From Burkholderiaceae bacterium (GTDB lineage: Bacteria; Pseudomonadota; Gammaproteobacteria; Burkholderiales; Burkholderiaceae), in the NCBI GenBank assembly GCA_028871175.1, contig JAGWNU010000006.1, forward strand, positions 1 to 48,783: a stretch of DNA of 48,783 nt, read 5' to 3'. The notes beneath the pieces were generated by a model, which made no database searches, was not told where the DNA came from, and saw only the letters and a list, made by a program, of their open reading frames with translations. This document shows, in pieces, positions 1 to 30,822 of this stretch. Numbering within the stretch: position 1 is the first letter of the stretch; every line of letters starts with the position of its first letter. The translations under genes were made by a program, and so were the position numbers.

Positions 1-881
<881 letters not shown>

Positions 882-3694: not shown

Positions 3695-4999
3695 ATGCGC
3701 CCCCGCTCAACCGACCTGCCCCTCGATTCGACCGAAACCGCCAGCCGTGACGCCATCCAGGCGCTGCAGCTCGAGCGGCTGAAGCGCAGCCTTGCCCATG
3801 CCTACGACAACGTCCCCGCATACCGGGCCAAATTCGATGCAGTGGGCGCACATCCCGCAGACTTGCGCTCGCTGGCCGATCTGGCGAAGTTCCCCTTCAC
3901 CACCAAGGCAGACCTGCGCGACAACTATCCTTTTGGCATGTTTGCCGTGCCGCAGGACAGGATTGCGCGGATCCACGCCTCATCGGGCACGACGGGCAAA
4001 CCCACCGTGGTCGGCTACACGCTCGCCGACATCGATACGTGGGCCGGGCTGGTGGCACGCTCGATTCGAGCGGCGGGCGCACGGCGGGGCGACAAAGTTC
4101 ACGTGAGTTACGGTTACGGCCTCTTCACCGGGGGCCTGGGCGCTCACTATGGCGCCGAGCGCGCGGGCCTGACGGTCATTCCATTCGGCGGCGGACAGAC
4201 GGAGCGGCAAGTCCAGCTCATCGCCGATTTCCAGCCACAGATCATCATGGTCACGCCCAGCTACATGCTGGCGATTGCCGATGAGTGCGAGCGCCAAGGC
4301 ATGGACCCTGCCGCATCCAGCCTGCAGATCGGCATCTTCGGCGCAGAACCGTGGACGCCCGAAATGCGCAACGCCATCGAGGCGCGCATGGGGCTATCGG
4401 CTGTCGACATCTATGGACTCTCGGAAGTCATGGGCCCTGGCGTTGCCAGCGAGTGCGCCGAAACCAAGGACGGACCGACCATCTGGGAAGATCACTTCTA
4501 TCCGGAGATCATCGATCCGGACACCGGCGAGGTCCTGCCGGACGGCGAATTCGGCGAACTGGTCTTCACGTCGCTGACCAAGGAGGCCATGCCGGTGGTG
4601 CGCTACCGCACGCGCGACCTGACGCGCCTGCTACCCGGCACGGCGCGACCGGGCATGCGCCGCATGGAAAAGATCACCGGGCGCTGCGATGACATGATGA
4701 TCGTGCGCGGCGTGAACGTCTTCCCATCACAGATCGAGGAGTTGATCCTCAAACATGCGGCGCTTTCACCGCACTATCAGTGCGTCCTCGCCAAGGAGGG
4801 GCCGCTCGACACCTTGACGGTACGGATCGAAGCAGCGCTGGGCGCCCCGGCAGAGACGGCTCAGGCTGCAAGCAGGCGACTGGCGCACGACATCAAGTCG
4901 ATGATCGGCATTTCCGCAGCGATGGAAGTCCTGGCGGCCGGGGGAATTGAACGCTCGGTAGGCAAGGCGCGCCGCGTGGTCGACCTGCGGCGCGCTTAG
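3695..4999 (+). CDS. paaK: Phenylacetate-CoA ligase PaaK
   Basis: A 434-residue acyl-adenylate enzyme that activates phenylacetate with ATP and CoA, the entry step of the pathway. The AMP-binding P-loop is HASSGTTGKPT (residues 94-104), followed by YGLSEVMGPG and the C-terminal hinge region (EKITGRCDDMMIVRGVNVFPS). Length is typical of PaaK. GAGGAGA lies 7 nt before the ATG. The 79-bp gap after paaI contains a small hairpin (GCTCT-ATGT-AGAGC) and no gene. It is the last gene of this paa unit and converges on mltA, leaving 9 bp between the stops. Confidence 0.96.
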   Translation: MRPRSTDLPLDSTETASRDAIQALQLERLKRSLAHAYDNVPAYRAKFDAVGAHPADLRSLADLAKFPFTTKADLRDNYPFGMFAVPQDRIARIHASSGTTGKPTVVGYTLADIDTWAGLVARSIRAAGARRGDKVHVSYGYGLFTGGLGAHYGAERAGLTVIPFGGGQTERQVQLIADFQPQIIMVTPSYMLAIADECERQGMDPAASSLQIGIFGAEPWTPEMRNAIEARMGLSAVDIYGLSEVMGPGVASECAETKDGPTIWEDHFYPEIIDPDTGEVLPDGEFGELVFTSLTKEAMPVVRYRTRDLTRLLPGTARPGMRRMEKITGRCDDMMIVRGVNVFPSQIEELILKHAALSPHYQCVLAKEGPLDTLTVRIEAALGAPAETAQAASRRLAHDIKSMIGISAAMEVLAAGGIERSVGKARRVVDLRRA

Positions 5000-5008
5000 C
5001 GCCTGGCT

Positions 5009-6151
5009 TCAGCGGGAAGCGACCCCGACACTGCCGCCCTTGGGCACCAGCACCCACAGCCGGCCGGCTTGCTTCATGCGTCCGGCCAGATCGCCGGCGG
5101 CATCGCCGTGGCCGAAGTAATAGTCGGCCCGCACGGCGCCACGGATGGCTGAGCCCACGTCCTGCGCGAACACGAGCTTCTGGATCGGATCGGTCGACAA
5201 TGGTTTCGTCGTCGACAGAAAGACGGGGGAGCCGAGCGGAATGTAACTGGGGTCCACCGCAATCGACCGTTCGTCCGTGAGGGGTACGCCCAGCTTGCCG
5301 ATAGGCCCGCCGGTATTGCCAGGGGTCTCGGCGAAGAAGACAAAACGCGGGTTCACGTTGAGCATCTCTTCCACGCGGCCAGGGTTGGCGCGCGCCCAGG
5401 CCTTGATGCCCTGCATGGTCGCCTGCACCGGCGTGATCTCGCCCTGATCGAGCAGCCAGCGCGCGAACGAACGGAAGGGCTGGTTATTGGTGCCGCCCAC
5501 GCCCAGGCGCATGATGCCGCCCTCTTCCAACTGGACTTGCCCCGAGCCCTGAATCTGCAGGAATGCCGCCTCGACCGGGTCGTCCACCCAGACAATTTCC
5601 TGCCCCCGCAACACCGGGCTGTGGATCAACTGCGCACGCGGTGGCAGCGTCTTGCCACGCCATGCCGCGGGCATGCGATACAACGGCGTCTGGTAGATGC
5701 CGTGGCGCGTGCGCGACCCGCGCAGCAGCGGTTCGTAATAGCCGGTGATCAGCCCGCTGTCTGTGCCGTCCTCCTTGACGACACGGTAAGGGGTGAAATT
5801 GTCTTCGAAGAAGACACGCATGGCGATGGGATCGCCGGCATCGACCATCAGGCCGGCCGAGCAGACGCGCGACCAGTCAGCGCGGCGCCTCATCGCCTCG
5901 CAGTTCGATTGCAGCGCGGGCCAGGCGGAGGCGAGATCATCGGCGGTCCAGCCGGCGACGTCCGCCCAGGTCGCGGGGGCCAGATGCCCGCCCAGGGTTG
6001 CCGTAGGCGGTTGCGTCGATTCAACGCGCGGCGGCGGTCCGCTGGTACAGGCGGCAAGCAAGGCGGTGACGAGGGTGGCGACCAGCCCGGCCCAACGGCG
6101 ATGGGCGGCGGTACGAGCCGGTGTCAATGCGTCCAAGGTTGCTGCTGTCAT
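5009..6151 (-). CDS. mltA: Membrane-bound lytic murein transglycosylase A
   Basis: A 380-residue lipoprotein that cleaves the MurNAc-GlcNAc bond of peptidoglycan to 1,6-anhydro products. An N-terminal signal ends in a lipobox LLAAC (Cys35), implying outer-membrane anchoring. The MltA domain follows (GLITGYYEPLLRGS, YRMPAAW, IQGSGQVQL). The C-terminal 3D domain includes QDVGSAIRGAVRADYYFG, where the catalytic Asp of the family resides. The signal peptide is long at the N-terminus (about 20 residues before the hydrophobic core), so a later start is conceivable, but no better start codon is evident. Confidence 0.95.
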   Translation of the reverse strand: MTAATLDALTPARTAAHRRWAGLVATLVTALLAACTSGPPPRVESTQPPTATLGGHLAPATWADVAGWTADDLASAWPALQSNCEAMRRRADWSRVCSAGLMVDAGDPIAMRVFFEDNFTPYRVVKEDGTDSGLITGYYEPLLRGSRTRHGIYQTPLYRMPAAWRGKTLPPRAQLIHSPVLRGQEIVWVDDPVEAAFLQIQGSGQVQLEEGGIMRLGVGGTNNQPFRSFARWLLDQGEITPVQATMQGIKAWARANPGRVEEMLNVNPRFVFFAETPGNTGGPIGKLGVPLTDERSIAVDPSYIPLGSPVFLSTTKPLSTDPIQKLVFAQDVGSAIRGAVRADYYFGHGDAAGDLAGRMKQAGRLWVLVPKGGSVGVASR

Positions 6152-6234
6152 GCCTGTTTCATCCTGTCCGGCGGTTCGATGTGGGCGGCCGGCTTGGCTA
6201 CAATGCCCGGCATCTGCGCTTCTCGCCGTCGATC

Positions 6235-6480
6235 ATGAGCAAATTCTTTGAAAACCATCCAATGATGCTGTTTGGCCTGGAGGCCGGCGTGGCGCTGTTC
6301 CTGCTGCTCTTCGTCGTGGTCTGGACGATGTCCGGCGCCAAGAAGCATCCGCGTCCCCTGCGTGCGCCGCCGGACCATCCGTCGCGCCAGGGGGCGCAGG
6401 ACCCCCAGACCGCCAAGCCCTCGGAGTCGACCGAATCCGCGCCAAAAGATTCGCGTCCGGCCAAGTCCGACACCCACTGA
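6235..6480 (+). CDS. Small single-pass membrane protein of unknown function
   Basis: An 81-residue protein. A short N-terminus (MSKFFENHP) leads into a hydrophobic helix at about residues 10-32 (GLEAGVALFLLLFVVVW). A hydrophilic Pro/Ser/Lys-rich tail follows, probably cytoplasmic or periplasmic and disordered. A TACAAT -10-like hexamer lies at 6199-6204. The gene is divergent from mltA, and its stop abuts the stop of the leftward apaG (no gap, TGATCA junction). I do not recognise the family; the codon use and the clean membrane/tail organisation support a real gene. Confidence 0.65.
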   Translation: MSKFFENHPMMLFGLEAGVALFLLLFVVVWTMSGAKKHPRPLRAPPDHPSRQGAQDPQTAKPSESTESAPKDSRPAKSDTH

Positions 6481-6855
6481 TCAGTGCAGCATGCGCGGCA
6501 TCACCAGCGCAAACTCCGGGATCGGCGCCTCGAAGCGGTGACCGTCTTCCGCCACGCAGAAGTATTCGCCGCGCATGGTGCCGACGGGCGTCTTGATCGT
6601 CGCCCAGCTCGTGTATTCGAAAGACTCGCCCGGCGGCAGCAGCGGCTGATGGCCGACCACACCCAGGCCGCTGACCTCCTGCACCTGCTCGTCGGCGTCG
6701 GTGATCACCCAGTGGCGGGAGATGAGCTGGCTCGACACGTCACCCGTGTTGCGGATGGTGATGGTGTAGGCGAAGGCGTAGCTGCCCTGCTCCGGCTCGG
6801 ATTGCTCCGGCAGATAGCGCGTCCGGACCTGGACGGTGAGTTCGTAGCTCGGCAT
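6481..6855 (-). CDS. apaG: Co2+/Mg2+ efflux-associated protein ApaG
   Basis: A 124-residue single-domain ApaG protein with an FN3-like beta-sandwich. Recognisable blocks are YAFAYTITIRNTG, SRHWVITDADE, VVGHQPLLPPGESFEYTS and GTMRGEYFCV, covering the whole family domain. Start set at ATG 6855, because the usual ApaG N-terminus (MPSYELTVQVRTRYLPEQS) begins there; 22 upstream in-frame codons are unlike the family. ApaG is linked genetically to metal resistance in enterics and its domain occurs in F-box proteins; the biochemical role is not settled. Confidence 0.95.
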   Translation of the reverse strand: MPSYELTVQVRTRYLPEQSEPEQGSYAFAYTITIRNTGDVSSQLISRHWVITDADEQVQEVSGLGVVGHQPLLPPGESFEYTSWATIKTPVGTMRGEYFCVAEDGHRFEAPIPEFALVMPRMLH

Positions 6856-6985
6856 GACGATCCACAATAAGAATGGCGCCCATTGTGCGGCATGGCCGTG
6901 GCAGCGGCAAGGCGCGGCCACGCGGCCGATCCGGCTAAAATAGCGGCCTTCTTCGCGCTTGCGCGCGCCTTACCCGTCTCCCATC

Positions 6986-7714
6986 ATGTCCGCAGCCATC
7001 GACCCGTCCGGTTTCCGCATTGCCCCGTCCATCCTGTCCGCCGACTTTGCCCGCCTGGGCGAAGAGGTGCGCCGCGTACTTGAATCGGGCGCCGACTGGA
7101 TCCACTTTGACGTGATGGATAACCATTACGTCCCGAACCTGACCGTCGGCCCGCTGGTGTGCGAGGCGATACGCCCGCACGCGCAAAAGGACGGCAAGCC
7201 GGTGCCGATCGACGTGCACCTGATGGTCAGCCCCGTCGATCGCATCATTCCGGACTTTGCCAAGGCCGGCGCCGACCTGATCACGTTCCATCCGGAGGCG
7301 TCGGAGCACATCGACCGCTCGCTGGCGCTGATTCGCGACCACGGCTGCAAGGCTGGCCTCGTCTTCAATCCGGCCACGCCGCTGCACTACCTGGACCATG
7401 TGATGGACCGCCTGGATATGGTGCTGATCATGTCGGTCAACCCGGGCTTTGGCGGCCAATCGTTCATTCCGGAAGCGCTGAACAAGCTGCGCGCCGTTCG
7501 CCAGAAGCTCGACGCGTACCAGGACACGACCGGCCGCAAGATCCTGCTGGAGATCGACGGCGGCGTGAAGGCAGATAACATCGCCGAGATTGCCAAAGCC
7601 GGCGCTGACACCTTCGTCGCGGGTTCGGCCGTGTTCGGCAAGCCGGACGCGGACGGCGGTTACCGCGGCACCGTCGGCGCACTGCGCCAGGCCCTGGCCG
7701 GGATCTCGGCATGA
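6986..7714 (+). CDS. rpe: Ribulose-phosphate 3-epimerase
   Basis: A 242-residue TIM-barrel enzyme interconverting ribulose-5-phosphate and xylulose-5-phosphate in the pentose phosphate (and Calvin) pathways. Conserved blocks are [35 protein letters not shown] (metal His/Asp), VDVHLMV-type [17 protein letters not shown] and EIDGGV, followed by the phosphate site [11 protein letters not shown] 6986 gives the normal N-terminus. The stop overlaps the gph start by 4 nt (ATGA), indicating translational coupling. A TAAAAT hexamer at 6936-6941 is a plausible -10. Confidence 0.97.
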
Positions 7715-8439
7715 CGGGCATGCTGCCGGCAGGCGCCGTCCGCGCCGTCATCATCGACCTGGACGGGACGATGGTCGACACGGCAGGCGATTTCCACGCC
7801 GCCATCAACACGATGCTGGAGGCACTTGGCGGCACGCCTGACATGCCTGCCGAGGAAGTCGTCAGCTACGTCGGCAAAGGTTCGGAAAACCTCGTGCGAC
7901 GCGTGCTGGATGCGCGCTTGCCACCGGCCCAGGCAAATAGCCGCTTTGCGGAAGGCCTGGAGGCTTATCAGCGCGCCTACATCGCCATCAACGGGCGACA
8001 CGTGAAAGTCTACGACGGCGTCCGCGAAGGGTTGACCGCACTGCGCGACATGGGCGTCGCCCTCGCGTGTGTGACAAACAAGCCACACGATTTCACGCAG
8101 CCGCTTCTCGCGCAGCTCGGCCTGAACACGTATTTCGACCTCGTCTACCCAGGCGACGCTTTCCCGTATCGCAAGCCCGATCCATACCCCATGCTGCGCG
8201 TGGCGGAGGCGTTTGGCGTGACACCGGCTGAAATCATCGCCATTGGCGACTCGGAAAACGACGCCCGCGCGGCCCGTGCGGCCGGCATGCGCGTGCTGGC
8301 GGTGCCGTATGGCTACAACCACGGCCAGCCTATACAGGCCGCCGGAGCCGATGCTATAGTCGAGACACTTTTTGCGGCAGCCGAACTGATCCGGCCCTAT
8401 GCAGAGCCCCACAATGCAGTCTCTGCCGCTTCCAACTGA
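7711..8439 (+). CDS. gph: Phosphoglycolate phosphatase
   Basis: A 242-residue HAD-superfamily phosphatase that dephosphorylates 2-phosphoglycolate from DNA-end repair or Rubisco oxygenation. HAD motif I is DLDGTMVDT (Asp16 nucleophile, Asp18). A helical cap domain follows, then motif II VTNKP, the lysine in YRKPDP and motif [17 protein letters not shown]. The rpe-gph pair upstream of trpE is a common betaproteobacterial arrangement. The gene ends only 6 nt before the candidate trp leader ORF, so trp transcripts may start within or upstream of gph. Confidence 0.95.
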
Positions 8440-25788: not shown

Positions 25789-25810
25789 CCAGACGCCTGC
25801 TTGAGGAAAG

Positions 25811-25832
25811 CCCCGCTCCGGCGGGGTTTTTT
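25811..25832 (+). terminator. Rho-independent terminator of ychF
   Basis: A 6-bp GC stem (CCCCGC / GCGGGG) with a TCCG tetraloop is followed by six T residues (25827-25832). It is preceded by GGAAAG, giving partial bidirectionality. Confidence 0.92.
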
Positions 25833-26064
25833 CATGGCCCGTGCCGATTGCAAAGTTGGGATAACCGGGCATCACGTCTTACACACCGGGTGCCGAGGTC
25901 GACACGCGCGCCATGTCCGGAGGACCCGGCAGTACGGCAAAGGCAACCGTCGGGCACGACGCTTGCTGCGGCAACGACGGATACGCAGACCGACCAGTTG
26001 TTTGGCGCTGCGCTGCCGCCACGGCCGGTACGCCGGCTCGCGTGCGGCTCCTTCGCACCCGACC

Positions 26065-28344
26065 ATGAGCTTGCATTCGCCCCTGATCGCCGACATCGAG
26101 GCCTCGGCAGGCGCCGAGCCCGATGCCACCATCCAGTCGCGCGGCGTGTTGCTGTGCCTGTCCGAGCCTGACCTGCACATCTGCCAGGCGAGCGAAAACC
26201 TGGAAGCTGCACTGGGCACGCCGCTGGCGCGAGCATTGCGCGCGCCCGTCGAACACGTGATCGGCGTCGCGGGCCGCGAGCAGATGGCGCGCGCCGTGGC
26301 CACGCACCAGATCGACGGCGTCCCGTTGTATTTCGGCACGGTGCAAACGCCTCATGGCCTCTTGCTCGAAGCGGTCGTCCATCGGCATCGTGGCGTGCTC
26401 CTCCTGGAGCTTGAACCTGCAACGCGTGCCGCCGACGGTGCATTTGCGTCGATGTATCCGCTGGTGCGCACGTTCGTTGCCAGCCTGCAGGCGGTGGAAA
26501 GTATCCACGCCCTCACGGATCTGGCGGCACGGGAGGTGCGCCGGATGACAGGCTTCGGCCGGGTCGCGATCCATCACTTCGACGCGGGCGACACGGTGCG
26601 CGTGCTGGCGGAGGCCCGAGACCCCGCTTACGACTCGCTGCATGGCGCGCAGTTGCCCGGCACCGACCTGACGCCCGAAATGCGCCGCATGTACGGGCGC
26701 AATCCGCTGCGTCTGGTGGCGGACGTCGACGACGCACCGGTTCGGCTGGTACCGGCCCGGAACCCCATATCGGGGCACGCGACCGATCTGTCCTATGCTG
26801 CGCTGCGGGCCCCCTCCGATGCGCAGCGCGAGCCGATGTGCCAGATGGGGGCGAGGGCTGTCCTCACGCTGACACTCACCGTGCGCGGGCGGCTCTGGGG
26901 CCTGATCGCCTGTCATCACGCCACACCCCACACGCTACCGTTCGAGGTGCGACTGGCGTGCGAGCACCTGGCCCAGATTCTTTCGCTGCAGATTGAAGCC
27001 AAGGAAGACCGGGAAGAGATCGCGCACCGCCTCGAATTGCGCCGCATCCTCGTGCGCCTGCTGGCAGCCATGGCCGATCGCGACAGCTTCCTCGACGGGT
27101 TGCTCGAGCATCCGGCCGACCTGCTGCGTTTTGCCTCGGCCAGCGGGGCGGCCATCGTGCATCAGGACGAATGCGTTCGCGTGGGCGCCGCGCCCGAGGC
27201 CGATAGCATCCTGCAGCTGACCGACTGGCTTGCGACCGCACACCCGCGCGAGGTGTTCCACACCGATCGCCTGTCGACCGTCTACGCGGCCGGCGCGGCC
27301 CTGCTGCCGCACGCCGGGGGCGTGCTCGCTGTCCAGATTTCGCAACTCCATCGTGATTACGTGCTGTGGTTCCGGCCCGAAGCCCCGCAAACGGTGAACT
27401 GGGCCGGTGGCGCGCCGCCCGAGCAGGCCGACGAACACGCCGCGCCAGTGCTTGCCCGCACGCACCACTGGCAGCATCGCATCGCACATACCTCACGCCC
27501 GTGGCGGCCGAGCGAAGTGGAAATCGCGGCGGAATTACGCTACGCCGTGCTCAATATCGTCCTGCGCCGCGCCGAGGAGGCCGCCGAACTGGCTGGCGAA
27601 TTGCGCCGCGCCAATCACGAGCTGGAGGCCTTCTCTTACTCCGTTTCGCACGACTTGCGCGCGCCCCTGCGCCACATCGCCGGCTACGCCGAACTGCTTG
27701 GCGAGATGGAGGGCGACCACGTGTCCGCCCGCGGACGGCACTTCCTGCAGACCATCGCCAGCTCGTCGCGCTTTGCCGGCAAGCTGGTCGACGATCTGCT
27801 GACGTTCTCGCAAATGGGCCGCGGCGCGCTGCGCCCGACGGACGTGAACCTGACGCAGCTCGTGCGCGGCATCGCACGGGACCTGCGGGCCGATACCGGC
27901 GACCGGCACATCGAGTGGGAGATCGCGACGCTGCCCGTGGTGCGCGCCGATCCCGCCTTCCTCCAGCTGGCCGTGCGCAACCTGCTCTCCAATGCCATCA
28001 AGTACACGCGCGACCGCGACCCGGCCCGCATCCGCGTGGATGCCGAGCAACGCCCCGACGAAACCATCGTGCGCATCGCCGACAACGGTGTGGGATTTTC
28101 GATGGAGTACGTGGGCAAGCTGTTCGGCGTCTTTCAGCGGCTGCACCGCATGGAGGAATTCGAGGGCACCGGTATCGGCCTGGCCAACGTGCGGCGCATC
28201 GTCGAGCGCCACGGCGGCCGCACCTGGGCCGAGGGCGCGCTCGATCGCGGCGCCACGTTCTACTTCGCGCTGCCGCGCGTGCCGCCACCCGAGGCGGATT
28301 TCTTACCCGGCACCGCCCGCGCACCAGCGACGCGCGGCGCCTGA
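26065..28344 (+). CDS. Phytochrome-architecture sensor histidine kinase with degenerate chromophore pocket
   Basis: A 759-residue protein with PAS (about 20-115), GAF (about 135-305) and PHY (about 320-490) domains, then HisKA and HATPase_c. The autophosphorylated His is likely His529 (SVSHDLRAPLRH); the N box is NLLSNAIKY. Bacteriophytochrome hallmarks remain in IQSRGVLL, RNPLRLVADVD, LWGLIACHH and the tongue WFRPEAPQTVNW. The biliverdin Cys before the PAS domain is absent (AGAEPDATIQ), PASDIP reads PGTDLT, the SPxHxEYL stretch reads SDAQREPM, and PRxSF reads ARTHHW. Light sensing is therefore doubtful. It starts the cassette with the next two genes. Confidence 0.88.
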   Translation: MSLHSPLIADIEASAGAEPDATIQSRGVLLCLSEPDLHICQASENLEAALGTPLARALRAPVEHVIGVAGREQMARAVATHQIDGVPLYFGTVQTPHGLLLEAVVHRHRGVLLLELEPATRAADGAFASMYPLVRTFVASLQAVESIHALTDLAAREVRRMTGFGRVAIHHFDAGDTVRVLAEARDPAYDSLHGAQLPGTDLTPEMRRMYGRNPLRLVADVDDAPVRLVPARNPISGHATDLSYAALRAPSDAQREPMCQMGARAVLTLTLTVRGRLWGLIACHHATPHTLPFEVRLACEHLAQILSLQIEAKEDREEIAHRLELRRILVRLLAAMADRDSFLDGLLEHPADLLRFASASGAAIVHQDECVRVGAAPEADSILQLTDWLATAHPREVFHTDRLSTVYAAGAALLPHAGGVLAVQISQLHRDYVLWFRPEAPQTVNWAGGAPPEQADEHAAPVLARTHHWQHRIAHTSRPWRPSEVEIAAELRYAVLNIVLRRAEEAAELAGELRRANHELEAFSYSVSHDLRAPLRHIAGYAELLGEMEGDHVSARGRHFLQTIASSSRFAGKLVDDLLTFSQMGRGALRPTDVNLTQLVRGIARDLRADTGDRHIEWEIATLPVVRADPAFLQLAVRNLLSNAIKYTRDRDPARIRVDAEQRPDETIVRIADNGVGFSMEYVGKLFGVFQRLHRMEEFEGTGIGLANVRRIVERHGGRTWAEGALDRGATFYFALPRVPPPEADFLPGTARAPATRGA

Positions 28345-28370: not shown

Positions 28371-28838
28371 ATGCTCAAACCCATCCTGCTCGTTGAAGAC
28401 AACCCGAACGACCTCGAGCTGACCTTGCTGGCGCTGGAGCGCAGCCAGCTCGCCAACGATGTGGTCGTGACCCGTGACGGCGCCGAGGCGCTCGACTACC
28501 TGCACGCGCGCGGCACCTACGCTGGCCGCGCACCTGGCAACCCTGCCGTCGTCCTGCTCGACCTCAAACTGCCCAAGGTCGACGGGCTCGAAGTGCTGGC
28601 CAACATCCGATCCACCCACGCGCTCAAGAGCCTGCCCGTGGTCATGCTCACCTCGTCGCGCGAGGAAATCGACCTGTTGCGCAGCTACGAGCTGGGCGTC
28701 AACGCCTATGTGGTCAAGCCGGTCGAGTTCCGCGCGTTTGTCGATGCGATCGCCGACCTGGGCGTGTTCTGGGCTGTGCTCAATGAGCCGCCACCGGGTT
28801 CGACCCGCACCCGCCGCGCCACGCACGCCGCCGGCTAG
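28371..28838 (+). CDS. Single-domain response regulator (Rcp1-like)
   Basis: A 155-residue stand-alone receiver domain of the type paired with phytochromes (Rcp1 class). The acidic pair is in LLVEDNPND, the phosphoacceptor Asp64 in VLLDLKLPKVDG, the switch Thr in VMLTSS and the conserved Lys116 in VVKPVEF. There is no DNA-binding or output domain, so it probably relays phosphate or acts by protein contact. The gene begins 26 nt after the phytochrome-like kinase and 25 nt before the hybrid kinase, implying one operon. A basic tail (TRTRRATHAAG) ends it. Confidence 0.93.
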   Translation: MLKPILLVEDNPNDLELTLLALERSQLANDVVVTRDGAEALDYLHARGTYAGRAPGNPAVVLLDLKLPKVDGLEVLANIRSTHALKSLPVVMLTSSREEIDLLRSYELGVNAYVVKPVEFRAFVDAIADLGVFWAVLNEPPPGSTRTRRATHAAG

Positions 28839-28863: not shown

Positions 28864-30822
28864 ATGCCCAACCTGCAACTGCTGCTGGTCGAAGACAACC
28901 TGCTGGACGCCGAACTGACGCGTGCGCGGCTGGAAACGGCCAATCTGTTGGCGGACACCGTCCTGGTCGACAACGAACCCGACTTTGTCGACCAGCTCAG
29001 CACGCGCACCTTCGACGCCATCCTGGCCGACTACATGCTGCCGCAGTTCACTGGCGCGGAGGCGCTGGACATTGCCCGGCGCATGGCGCCGCAGACACCG
29101 TTCATCTTCGTCTCGGGCGCGCTGGGCGAGGAACACGCGGTCGACATGCTCAAACGCGGGGCGACCGATTACGTGATCAAGCAGCGCCTGCAACGCCTGC
29201 CGGTCGTGCTGCTGCGCGCCCTGGCGGAAGCCGCCGAGCGCCGTCAGCGGATCGCCGCCGAAGCCGCGCTGCGTGAGACGGAAACGCACTTCCGCCTGCT
29301 CGTCAACGCGCTCAAGGAGCACGCCGTGCTCTCACTCGACCCCGACGGCATCGTGCGGACCTGGAATGCTGCGTCGCGCGGCATCCTCGGCTACGGGCGA
29401 GAGGACATCCTCGGCAAATCGGCCGACATCCTGTATCCGCAGGCCGCGCGCGAGGCCGGCGACTTCCAGCGCAAGCTCGACCGCGTGCGCCAGGAAGGCA
29501 GCATCAGCGACGACCGCTGGATGCTGCGCAAGGACGGCACGCCATTCTTCGCGTCCAGCGTGGTCACCGCGATCCACAACGAAATGGGCGAGTTGATCGG
29601 TTTCTCGAAGATCATCCGCGACGCCACGGAAGACCGCATGGCTGCCGACGCGCTGCGCCGCGCGAAGGAGGAGGCCGAAACAGCCAACCACGCAAAAGAT
29701 CACTTTCTCGCGGTGCTCTCGCACGAACTGCGCACTCCCCTCACCCCCATCCTGACCGCCGTGCATCTGCTGGAACTGCGCCGCGATCTGCCTTCGGATG
29801 TGGTTGCGCAGCTGGAAGTCGTACGCCGCAACGCCGAGCTGGAAGCGCGCCTCATCGACGACCTGCTCGACATCACAGGCATTGCGCGCGGCAAGCTGGC
29901 GGTCAGTTTTGCGCCCGTGGATCTCTATCCGCTGCTGGAAAGCACTCTGGAAATGTCGCGCAGCGACATGCAGGAAAAACGCCTGTCGCTCAAGACCCGG
30001 TTCGAAGCCCGGCGCAGCACGCTACATGCCGACGGCGCGCGCATCCAGCAAGTCATTTGGAACCTCGTGCGCAACGCGGTGAAGTTCACGCCACCAGGCG
30101 GGGCCATCGAGGTGCGCACCTGGAATCCGGGAGCAGGCACCGTGGCGGTCGCGGTCAAGGACACCGGCATCGGCATCGAGCCGGAAGCCCTGCCGCGCAT
30201 CTTCTCGGCGTTCGAACAGGCCGACGCCTCGATCACGCAGCGCTTTGGCGGGCTGGGACTGGGGCTGGCGATCGCCCATGCGCTGGTGCAGAAGCACGAC
30301 GGCTCGCTCACCGCAGAAAGCGCGGGCCGGCACCAGGGCGCCACCTTTACGCTCATGTTGCCGGTTGCAGCCGAGCCGACGCAACGCGAGGCAACCCCCG
30401 CTCCGCCCATAGCGCGCGCCCAGCCGACGCGCGGTCTGCATGTTCTTCTGGTGGAAGACAACGCCGACACGGCCGAGGCCATGGGGCAGGTGCTGGCGAT
30501 TCTCGGCCACACCGTCACCGTAGCCAGCGGCGCGCAGACGGCCATGCGCGCGGCCGAATCCGGCCCGTTCGATCTGCTCATCAGCGATATCGGCCTGCCG
30601 GACGGCAGCGGCCTGGACGTGGTGCGGGCGTTTGGCGAGCGGCACGCGGCGCCGTCGATCGCCATCACGGGCTACGGCATGGAAGAGGACATCGCACGCT
30701 GTCACGAAGCTGGCTTTACGGACCACCTGACCAAGCCGGTCGATTTCAAGCGCCTGGAACGGCTGTTGGCGGGGTATCTGGCGGCACGCGATGCAGGTAC
30801 GGCCGACTTGCGCGCACGCTGA
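28864..30822 (+). CDS. Hybrid sensor kinase: REC-PAS-HisKA-HATPase-REC
   Basis: A 652-residue soluble kinase. The N-terminal receiver has Asp56 in AILADYMLPQF. A linker helix leads to a PAS domain (about 140-260, with a PAC tail GFSKIIRDATEDR). HisKA follows with His287 in VLSHELRTPLTP, then HATPase_c (NLVRNAVKFTPPGG; FGGLGLGLAIAHAL). The C-terminal receiver has the acidic pair in LLVEDNADT and Asp575 in LLISDIGLPDGSG. There are no membrane segments. With REC at both ends it can receive and return phosphate, consistent with a relay with the adjacent regulator. Output is unknown. Confidence 0.94.
   Translation: MPNLQLLLVEDNLLDAELTRARLETANLLADTVLVDNEPDFVDQLSTRTFDAILADYMLPQFTGAEALDIARRMAPQTPFIFVSGALGEEHAVDMLKRGATDYVIKQRLQRLPVVLLRALAEAAERRQRIAAEAALRETETHFRLLVNALKEHAVLSLDPDGIVRTWNAASRGILGYGREDILGKSADILYPQAAREAGDFQRKLDRVRQEGSISDDRWMLRKDGTPFFASSVVTAIHNEMGELIGFSKIIRDATEDRMAADALRRAKEEAETANHAKDHFLAVLSHELRTPLTPILTAVHLLELRRDLPSDVVAQLEVVRRNAELEARLIDDLLDITGIARGKLAVSFAPVDLYPLLESTLEMSRSDMQEKRLSLKTRFEARRSTLHADGARIQQVIWNLVRNAVKFTPPGGAIEVRTWNPGAGTVAVAVKDTGIGIEPEALPRIFSAFEQADASITQRFGGLGLGLAIAHALVQKHDGSLTAESAGRHQGATFTLMLPVAAEPTQREATPAPPIARAQPTRGLHVLLVEDNADTAEAMGQVLAILGHTVTVASGAQTAMRAAESGPFDLLISDIGLPDGSGLDVVRAFGERHAAPSIAITGYGMEEDIARCHEAGFTDHLTKPVDFKRLERLLAGYLAARDAGTADLRAR

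What the first reader, a model, noticed from the sequence alone, without database searches (positions are those of the whole stretch)
26065..28344. Phytochrome-architecture kinase that appears to have lost its chromophore pocket
The protein keeps full PAS-GAF-PHY-HisKA-HATPase order, several bacteriophytochrome signatures (LWGLIACHH, WFRPEAPQTVNW, RLVADVD) and an intact kinase. The biliverdin-binding Cys upstream of the PAS domain is missing, PASDIP has become PGTDLT, the SPxHxEYL helix has become SDAQREPM, and PRxSF of the PHY tongue has become ARTHHW. In phytochromes the DIP Asp and the PRxSF Arg contact each other, so both sides of a switch contact are altered together. It may sense something other than light, bind a bilin non-covalently, or use Cys259, which lies a few residues after the canonical GAF cysteine position of plant and cyanobacterial phytochromes. 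This could be a repurposed, blind phytochrome family.
Basis: partly seen in the sequence, partly recalled or inferred. Interest (0 to 1): 0.72.

Follow-up and report, generated by a model that had tools for sequence, protein, structure and literature searches.

The report
Ralstonia phytochrome kinase lacking its bilin site
Most sampled members of one bacterial genus keep a red-light receptor that has lost the attachment site for its light-catching pigment, in genomes where no gene for making that pigment was found, yet selection still preserves the protein, so it probably signals something other than light.

Summary
ORF 26065-28344 (+) encodes PAS-GAF-PHY-HisKA-HATPase. It lacks the biliverdin Cys, and no upstream frame supplies it. 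By DrBphP numbering (recalled), His260 is Gln, Tyr263 is Pro and Pro209 is Thr; the PRxSF motif is gone.

12 of 16 held Ralstonia genomes carry an ortholog; all 12 lack the Cys and have Gln at His260. Most relatives in other genera have a canonical pocket and a heme oxygenase gene, often nearby. Heme oxygenase was found in 0 of 14 Cys-less genomes and 92 of 95 Cys-bearing ones. The phytochrome-response regulator-hybrid kinase order is kept. Sensor dN/dS is 0.155, against 0.242 in canonical Caballeronia-type copies. A second lineage, G170, lost Cys, His260 and tongue motif independently; a third, G532, is uncertain.

Corrections: the window protein keeps the PASDIP Asp and perhaps the tongue Arg. 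Cys259 is Arg in the other 11 Ralstonia.

Best reading: a bilin-independent, light-blind histidine kinase under purifying selection, cue unknown. Blind phytochromes are known elsewhere (A. fumigatus FphB; RpBphP4, recalled): a new variant of a known kind.

The parts
26065..28344 (+). phytochrome-architecture histidine kinase lacking the bilin Cys (759 aa)
   Evidence: orthologs
26065..26145 (+). N-terminal segment (residues 1-27) where canonical relatives have CxxEPIHIPG[GA]IQPHG; here no Cys, ends in IQSRG
   Evidence: alignment; no alternative frame
26128..26421 (+). PAS_2 domain (residues 22-119)
   Evidence: only PAS_2 match found in the genome
26503..26994 (+). GAF domain (residues 147-310), the former bilin pocket
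   Evidence: residue table
26656..26673 (+). PGTDLT in place of PASDIP (residues 198-203; Asp201 kept)
26815..26838 (+). SDAQREPM in place of SPxHxEYM (residues 251-258; Q254 at the DrBphP His260 position)
27040..27573 (+). PHY domain (residues 326-503)
27454..27471 (+). ARTHHW in the PHY tongue where relatives have PRxSF
27625..27822 (+). HisKA with phospho-acceptor H529 (SHDLRAPLRHI), invariant in 12 Ralstonia
27949..28278 (+). HATPase_c with N, G1 and G2 boxes intact
28371..28838 (+). single-domain response regulator (155 aa), 92-94% identical in 5 Ralstonia loci, 77-80% in 4 Caballeronia-type loci
28864..30822 (+). hybrid kinase receiver-PAS-HisKA-HATPase-receiver (652 aa); found in the same 12 of 16 Ralstonia genomes as the phytochrome
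25789..26064 (.). gap upstream of the kinase; in the four Caballeronia-type loci read (L059-L062) a heme oxygenase gene (bphO) lies directly upstream of the phytochrome; none found here

Best explanation
This is a light-blind bacteriophytochrome kept in Ralstonia. Shown: in Ralstonia no bphO was found, the chromophore Cys and several pocket and tongue residues are lost, and the kinase, response regulator and hybrid kinase are kept together. Inferred: an ancestor had an operon of the bphO-bphP-response regulator-hybrid kinase type, as in Caballeronia-type relatives. The PAS-GAF-PHY module now folds as a bilin-free dimeric input module that no longer reads light. It sets the kinase/phosphatase balance of the HisKA-HATPase half in response to another cytoplasmic cue, and passes phosphate to the adjacent single-domain response regulator in a pathway shared with the hybrid kinase. 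The cue is not identified.
For: Cys and His260 are lost in 12 of 12 Ralstonia orthologs. Heme oxygenase PF01126: 0 of 16 held Ralstonia. Two BphO proteins used as queries gave only weak partial hits in 4 of the 16 (E 0.071; 0.0014, 0.0065 and 0.081; the strongest has an internal stop and lies on another contig than the phytochrome). HugZ-type PF10615: 0 of 16. Over 109 genomes, heme oxygenase was found in 0 of 14 Cys-less and 92 of 95 Cys-bearing ones. Gene order is conserved apart from bphO. Phytochrome and hybrid kinase are present or absent together in 16 of 16 Ralstonia. dN/dS of the sensor module is 0.155 among 11 Ralstonia, not above 0.242 in canonical Caballeronia-type copies. Kinase catalytic motifs are invariant. 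Parallel loss in G170, nested inside a canonical clade with SH-aLRT support 100.
Against: No biochemistry. The heme oxygenase-Cys link rests on 3 independent pairs, and a sign test gives p 0.25. Losses are not concentrated at recalled pocket positions beyond other conserved columns (5 of 15 against 11 of 54, Fisher p 0.31). Ralstonia keep Tyr216, Arg222, Arg254, Ser257 and His290, so part of the pocket could still bind a tetrapyrrole. The window genome is about 90% complete. The structure prediction failed (pLDDT 39), so the fold of the pocket is not checked. Some of the 92 heme oxygenase genomes rest on weak matches (G353, G560, G666 at E 0.002-0.004; G530 at E 0.003), as weak as the hits discounted in Ralstonia.
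Confidence: 0.75

Rival explanations
1. The sensor half has no input at all: it is a constitutive dimerisation scaffold, the kinase is always on or acts mainly as a phosphatase, and the PAS domain of the neighbouring hybrid kinase supplies the signal.
For: No candidate ligand is known; the hybrid kinase with its own PAS domain is co-inherited in 12 of 12.
Against: dN/dS in the GAF domain is 0.126 among Ralstonia, lower than in canonical Caballeronia-type copies (0.169), more constraint than a bare scaffold would suggest, though a scaffold is also constrained.
Confidence: 0.25
2. A thiol redox sensor, as reported for the chromophore-less RpBphP4 of Rhodopseudomonas (recalled; title seen only in a reference list).
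For: C31, C299 and C370 are invariant in 12 of 12 Ralstonia; C370 occurs in 3 of 133 Cys-bearing relatives and C31 in 16 of 133. A redox-sensitive partner (LhfE) of R. palustris phytochromes is described in PMC6879726 (passages read).
Against: C299 is common in relatives (88 of 133). No pair is known to be close in space; no usable model.
Confidence: 0.15
3. It still binds biliverdin or another tetrapyrrole non-covalently, acquired from outside, and keeps some light response.
For: Arg222, Arg254, Ser257, Tyr216 and His290 are retained in 12 of 12 Ralstonia. Single losses can be tolerated: SaBphP1 lacks the conserved His of the His290 position yet keeps some photoactivity (PMC6748860, passages read).
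Against: No credible heme oxygenase found in 16 of 16 Ralstonia genomes; Cys, His260, Tyr263, Pro209 and the PRxSF motif are all lost.
Confidence: 0.1
4. A decaying gene on its way out.
For: 4 of 16 Ralstonia genomes lack the gene, one of them only 88% complete; the window protein is much more diverged than its neighbours.
Against: Open in 12 of 12 with no stop; dN/dS 0.155 in the sensor and 0.078 in the kinase.
Confidence: 0.04
5. An annotation artefact: wrong start or frameshift hides a canonical N-terminus.
For: By eye the 18 nt before the ATG hold no clear ribosome-binding site (sequence).
Against: No Cys or EPIHIPG motif in any upstream frame in 9 loci; the same loss is seen in 12 assemblies; the pocket changes are internal.
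Confidence: 0.01

Closest known systems
Canonical bacteriophytochromes with a bphO gene (DrBphP, Agp1; Caballeronia-type bphO-bphP-RR-hybrid kinase operon)
   Same: Domain order, kinase half, response regulator and hybrid kinase partners; 51-53% identity in four Caballeronia-type loci.
   Different: Cys, His260, Tyr263, Pro209 and PRxSF lost; no bphO found.
Aspergillus fumigatus FphB (PMC12607886, passages read)
   Same: A phytochrome lacking the Cys and GAF/PHY motifs; shown there to be photoinactive and without zinc fluorescence, yet its deletion has a phenotype.
   Different: Fungal hybrid kinase beside a photoactive paralog FphA; the 12 Ralstonia genomes have one PHY-domain gene each.
[quoted passage not shown] title seen in a reference list, text not held, content recalled)
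   Same: Bacterial phytochrome-type kinase reported to have lost its chromophore in some strains (recalled).
   Different: There a strain-level change in a phototroph with other phytochromes (recalled); here shared by 12 of 12 Ralstonia orthologs, without bphO.
RpBphP2/P3 of R. palustris (PMC6879726 passages; the 2014 apo-bacteriophytochrome paper not held)
   Same: Needed for a response in which their light-quality sensing is dispensable.
   Different: Those proteins sense red light under other conditions.

Membership tests
Phytochrome superfamily (PAS-GAF-PHY architecture) | PAS_2, GAF and PHY domains in order, above Pfam cut-offs | tested here: met
Bacteriophytochrome photoreceptor (BphP) | Biliverdin-binding Cys N-terminal to the PAS domain | tested here: not met
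Bacteriophytochrome photoreceptor (BphP) | PASDIP and conserved His260 and Tyr263 in the GAF domain | tested here: not met
   PGTDLT, Gln, Pro; the Asp itself is kept
Bacteriophytochrome photoreceptor (BphP) | PRxSF motif in the PHY tongue | tested here: not met
   retention of the Arg alone depends on the alignment
Bacteriophytochrome photoreceptor (BphP) | Heme oxygenase in the genome to supply biliverdin (usual companion) | tested here: not met
   0 of 16 Ralstonia by PF01126, only weak partial hits with BphO queries; window genome 90% complete
Bacteriophytochrome photoreceptor (BphP) | NCBIfam equivalog NF041576 above cut-off | tested here: inconclusive
   184 bits against cut-off 1040, but a canonical relative also fails with 310 bits
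Bacteriophytochrome photoreceptor (BphP) | Red/far-red photochromism | not testable with these tools
   needs purified protein
Two-component histidine kinase | HisKA phospho-acceptor His and HATPase N/G boxes | tested here: met
Chromophore-less phytochrome of the RpBphP4 kind (redox sensor) | Redox-dependent kinase activity | not testable with these tools
   invariant Cys listed only

The most novel reading that the evidence does not exclude
Losing bphO repeatedly converts bacteriophytochromes into bilin-free signalling kinases, with the same His260-to-Gln change in every Cys-less case seen here (Ralstonia, G170, and perhaps G532). In Ralstonia the former bilin pocket, which keeps Arg222, Arg254 and Ser257 (the propionate side, recalled) plus His290, has been taken over by a different small acidic ligand, making a new class of soluble metabolite-sensing kinase on a phytochrome scaffold.
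Probability: 0.25. Interest if true: 0.78.

Novelty: new variant of a known kind. Interest (0 to 1): 0.56.

Why it matters
The role of bacteriophytochromes in vivo remains largely unknown (abstract of PMC6748860, seen), and whether the PAS-GAF-PHY scaffold can signal without bilin is an open question (from my own knowledge). A genus in which pigment supply and attachment site are both gone, yet the sensor stays under purifying selection and beside its old partners, is a natural experiment. Comparing it with intact, bphO-bearing orthologs could show what the scaffold does apart from light.

Tried and rejected
Cys259 as a substitute attachment site: rejected, Arg in the other 11 Ralstonia. Paired Asp-Arg loss: not shown for the window protein. 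Wrong start or frame: rejected. A concentration of losses at pocket positions: tested, not significant (p 0.31; I chose the pocket list, recalled from DrBphP numbering). AlphaFold on 8 sequences: mean pLDDT 39, pTM 0.29, unusable, so no fold search was run. NCBIfam BphP cut-off: does not discriminate. Plasmid collection: 36 records, all below 60% identity; a 16S fragment search there gave Cupriavidus at 94% and did not help. Independent-pairs test of heme oxygenase against Cys: only 3 pairs, p 0.25. The tree is a quick SH-aLRT tree of 83 of 147 rows. My first alignment read 10 minus-strand loci on the wrong strand; one search replaced it.

Rows left out before the 147-row count: broken or partial family hits (G166, G296, G226:C57, G214:C410, G184:C2), and the weaker further hits of genomes already represented plus three genomes with weak hits only (G424, G401, G605). 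Three Cys-bearing rows with odd tongues (G122, G529, and one of G178) were set aside but counted.

Full report
What is there. The ORF at 26065-28344 on the plus strand is intact and encodes 759 aa. Pfam places PAS_2 at residues 22-119, GAF 147-310, PHY 326-503, HisKA 521-586 and HATPase_c 629-738. Solved bacteriophytochromes are its best sequence relatives among solved structures (E 5.5e-104). The window is contig C316 of a 4.06 Mb, 90.4% complete assembly with one PAS_2 match found. The genus is Ralstonia: eight named orthologs of 74-76% best-segment identity came from Ralstonia pickettii (2), R. soli, four Ralstonia sp. and one 'Burkholderiaceae bacterium'.

Pocket state. Sixteen genomes of the genus are held; 12 have a PHY domain, each in an ortholog of this protein, the 11 others at 74-77% identity. 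All 12 lack the Cys. Against 130 canonical rows (DrBphP numbers recalled), all 12 have Gln for His260; Thr (10), Ala or Pro for Tyr263; Thr (11) or Ala for Pro209; and Leu (11) or Trp for Phe203. Asp207 is Gly (10) or Ser (1) but stays Asp in the window protein. Tyr216, Arg222, Arg254, Ser257 and His290 are retained in 12 of 12, and Tyr176 in 11 of 12 (His in the window). The PRxSF motif is lost; an Arg is aligned there in 11 of 12 in one alignment, but the window residue is Leu or Val in two others. The published Asp-Arg salt bridge between PASDIP and PRXSF (SaBphP2, PMC6748860, passages read) is therefore not shown to be broken in the window protein. The changed columns are not enriched for pocket positions over other conserved columns (5 of 15 against 11 of 54, p 0.31). 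I do not claim a wholesale collapse, but a specific set of losses that includes the Cys, His260, Tyr263 and the tongue motif.

Supply of bilin. PF01126 heme oxygenase is absent from 16 of 16 Ralstonia. A Caballeronia-type BphO and a second BphO subtype used as queries gave weak hits in 4 of 16: E 0.071 in G158; 0.0014 in G096, 0.0065 in G137 and 0.081 in G043. These are partial; that in G096 has an internal stop and lies on another contig than the phytochrome, and G158 and G137 have no phytochrome. I discount them. PF10615 is also absent (0 of 16). In relatives, 18 of the 20 wide loci carry a heme oxygenase (L059-L074, L076, L078); the window and 8 Ralstonia loci carry none (0 of 9). Over 109 genomes the count is 0 of 14 for Cys-less and 92 of 95 for Cys-bearing (a tally). 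Four of the 92 rest on weak matches: G353, G560 and G666 (E 0.002-0.004, over the cut-off only with neighbouring pieces) and G530 (E 0.003, a few kb from its phytochrome). The three Cys-bearing exceptions are G122 (shortened tongue), G201 (only fragments of the heme oxygenase near the phytochrome) and G529 (tongue GGSF). The Fisher p of 4e-15 ignores relatedness; only three independent pairs exist and their sign test gives 0.25.

Operon. The four Caballeronia-type loci checked have phytochrome, response regulator and hybrid kinase in the same order as the window (L059-L062), with a heme oxygenase just upstream. The five Ralstonia loci compared have phytochrome, response regulator (92-94% identical to the window's) and hybrid kinase (87-88%), followed by HemA; in four of the five YchF lies upstream (the fifth locus begins at a contig end). 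The names YchF and HemA are recalled from the sequences. The hybrid kinase is found in the same 12 of 16 genomes as the phytochrome. So these two genes are kept or missing together, and bphO is what Ralstonia lacks.

Selection. Nei-Gojobori dN/dS among the 11 other Ralstonia (55 pairs) is 0.155 for the sensor module (GAF 0.126) and 0.078 for the kinase. Among 34 canonical Caballeronia-type copies (458 pairs with dS 0.1-0.9) it is 0.242 (GAF 0.169) and 0.123. In a set of up to 8 other Ralstonia loci the sensor gives 0.167, against 0.044 for YchF, 0.036 for the response regulator, 0.077 for the hybrid kinase and 0.161 for HemA. The sensor is constrained, though less so than most neighbours. Pairwise values average over lineages and cannot exclude relaxed selection on the stem branch; the long Ralstonia stem (0.75 changes per column) is compatible with a burst at the time of loss.

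Independence. Of 147 phytochromes aligned (146 from loci plus the window), 14 lack the Cys: 12 Ralstonia, L077 (G170, another genus of the same family) and L179 (G532, another family). All 14 have Gln at His260; of the other 133, 131 have His and 2 Tyr. In a tree of 83 rows Ralstonia is one clade (support 100) and G170 sits inside a separate 26-row clade (100), so the loss happened at least twice. G532 lies on a very long branch and its place is unsure. Within Ralstonia the window is the first branch and alone keeps Asp207, which suggests that loss of the Cys, His260, Tyr263 and tongue motif came first and Asp207 later (inference).

Mechanism. Shown: kinase motifs and partner genes intact, attachment site and several pocket residues lost, pigment-making enzyme not found. 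Inferred: a bilin-free input module feeding the adjacent response regulator. Candidates for the cue are thiol redox (C31 and C370 invariant in 12 Ralstonia; C370 in 3 of 133 Cys-bearing relatives), a small acidic ligand in the retained half of the pocket, or none.

Prior knowledge. A. fumigatus FphB lacks the Cys and GAF/PHY motifs, shows no red/far-red absorbance and no zinc fluorescence, and its deletion has a phenotype (PMC12607886, passages read). RpBphP4 is recalled as a light-to-redox case; its paper is not held. R. pseudosolanacearum GMI1000 is reported to have a LOV protein as the only photoreceptor detected (PMC8282871, passages read); a later paper on a Ralstonia LOV gene was also seen in passages (PMC12802281). 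Searches for Ralstonia with bacteriophytochrome (18 papers), Ralstonia/phytochrome/histidine kinase/pickettii (47 papers, 15 listed), RpBphP4 (0 papers), and chromophore-less, blind or photoinactive phytochromes listed no description of this Ralstonia family. The library is open-access only, several listings were capped, and I saw listings with abstract starts plus passages of seven papers.

Score. A clean, testable case of a blind phytochrome clade, but the kind is known. Interest 0.56.

Noticed in passing
L077 (G170), minus strand, about 6088-8073: A second, independent Cys-less phytochrome in another genus: RFPGSIQPHG, PASELP, APAAQVAQM, no PRxSF, Arg222 to Gln, and no heme oxygenase found in the genome.
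   Followed up: partly
L179 / L182 (G532): A highly diverged Cys-less phytochrome-like protein from another family of the order, with Gln at the His260 position and, by eye, PAS-like sequence after the PHY domain; no heme oxygenase found.
   Followed up: partly
L181 (G201), about 4150-4281: Only fragments of the usual heme oxygenase were found beside a phytochrome that still has its Cys, possibly an early step of the same loss.
   Followed up: partly
L075 (G122), 6097-8256: A Cys-bearing phytochrome with a shortened PHY tongue and Ser at Tyr263, in a genome where no heme oxygenase was found.
   Followed up: partly
window 1-879 minus strand: The contig starts inside a 16S rRNA gene (Rfam RF00177, cut at the 3' end).
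   Followed up: partly
window 26065-28344: The window phytochrome is only 74-77% identical to the other Ralstonia copies although the neighbouring YchF and HemA are 96-99.7% identical in the loci compared; the window is the earliest branch of the clade.
   Followed up: partly
   Followed up: no
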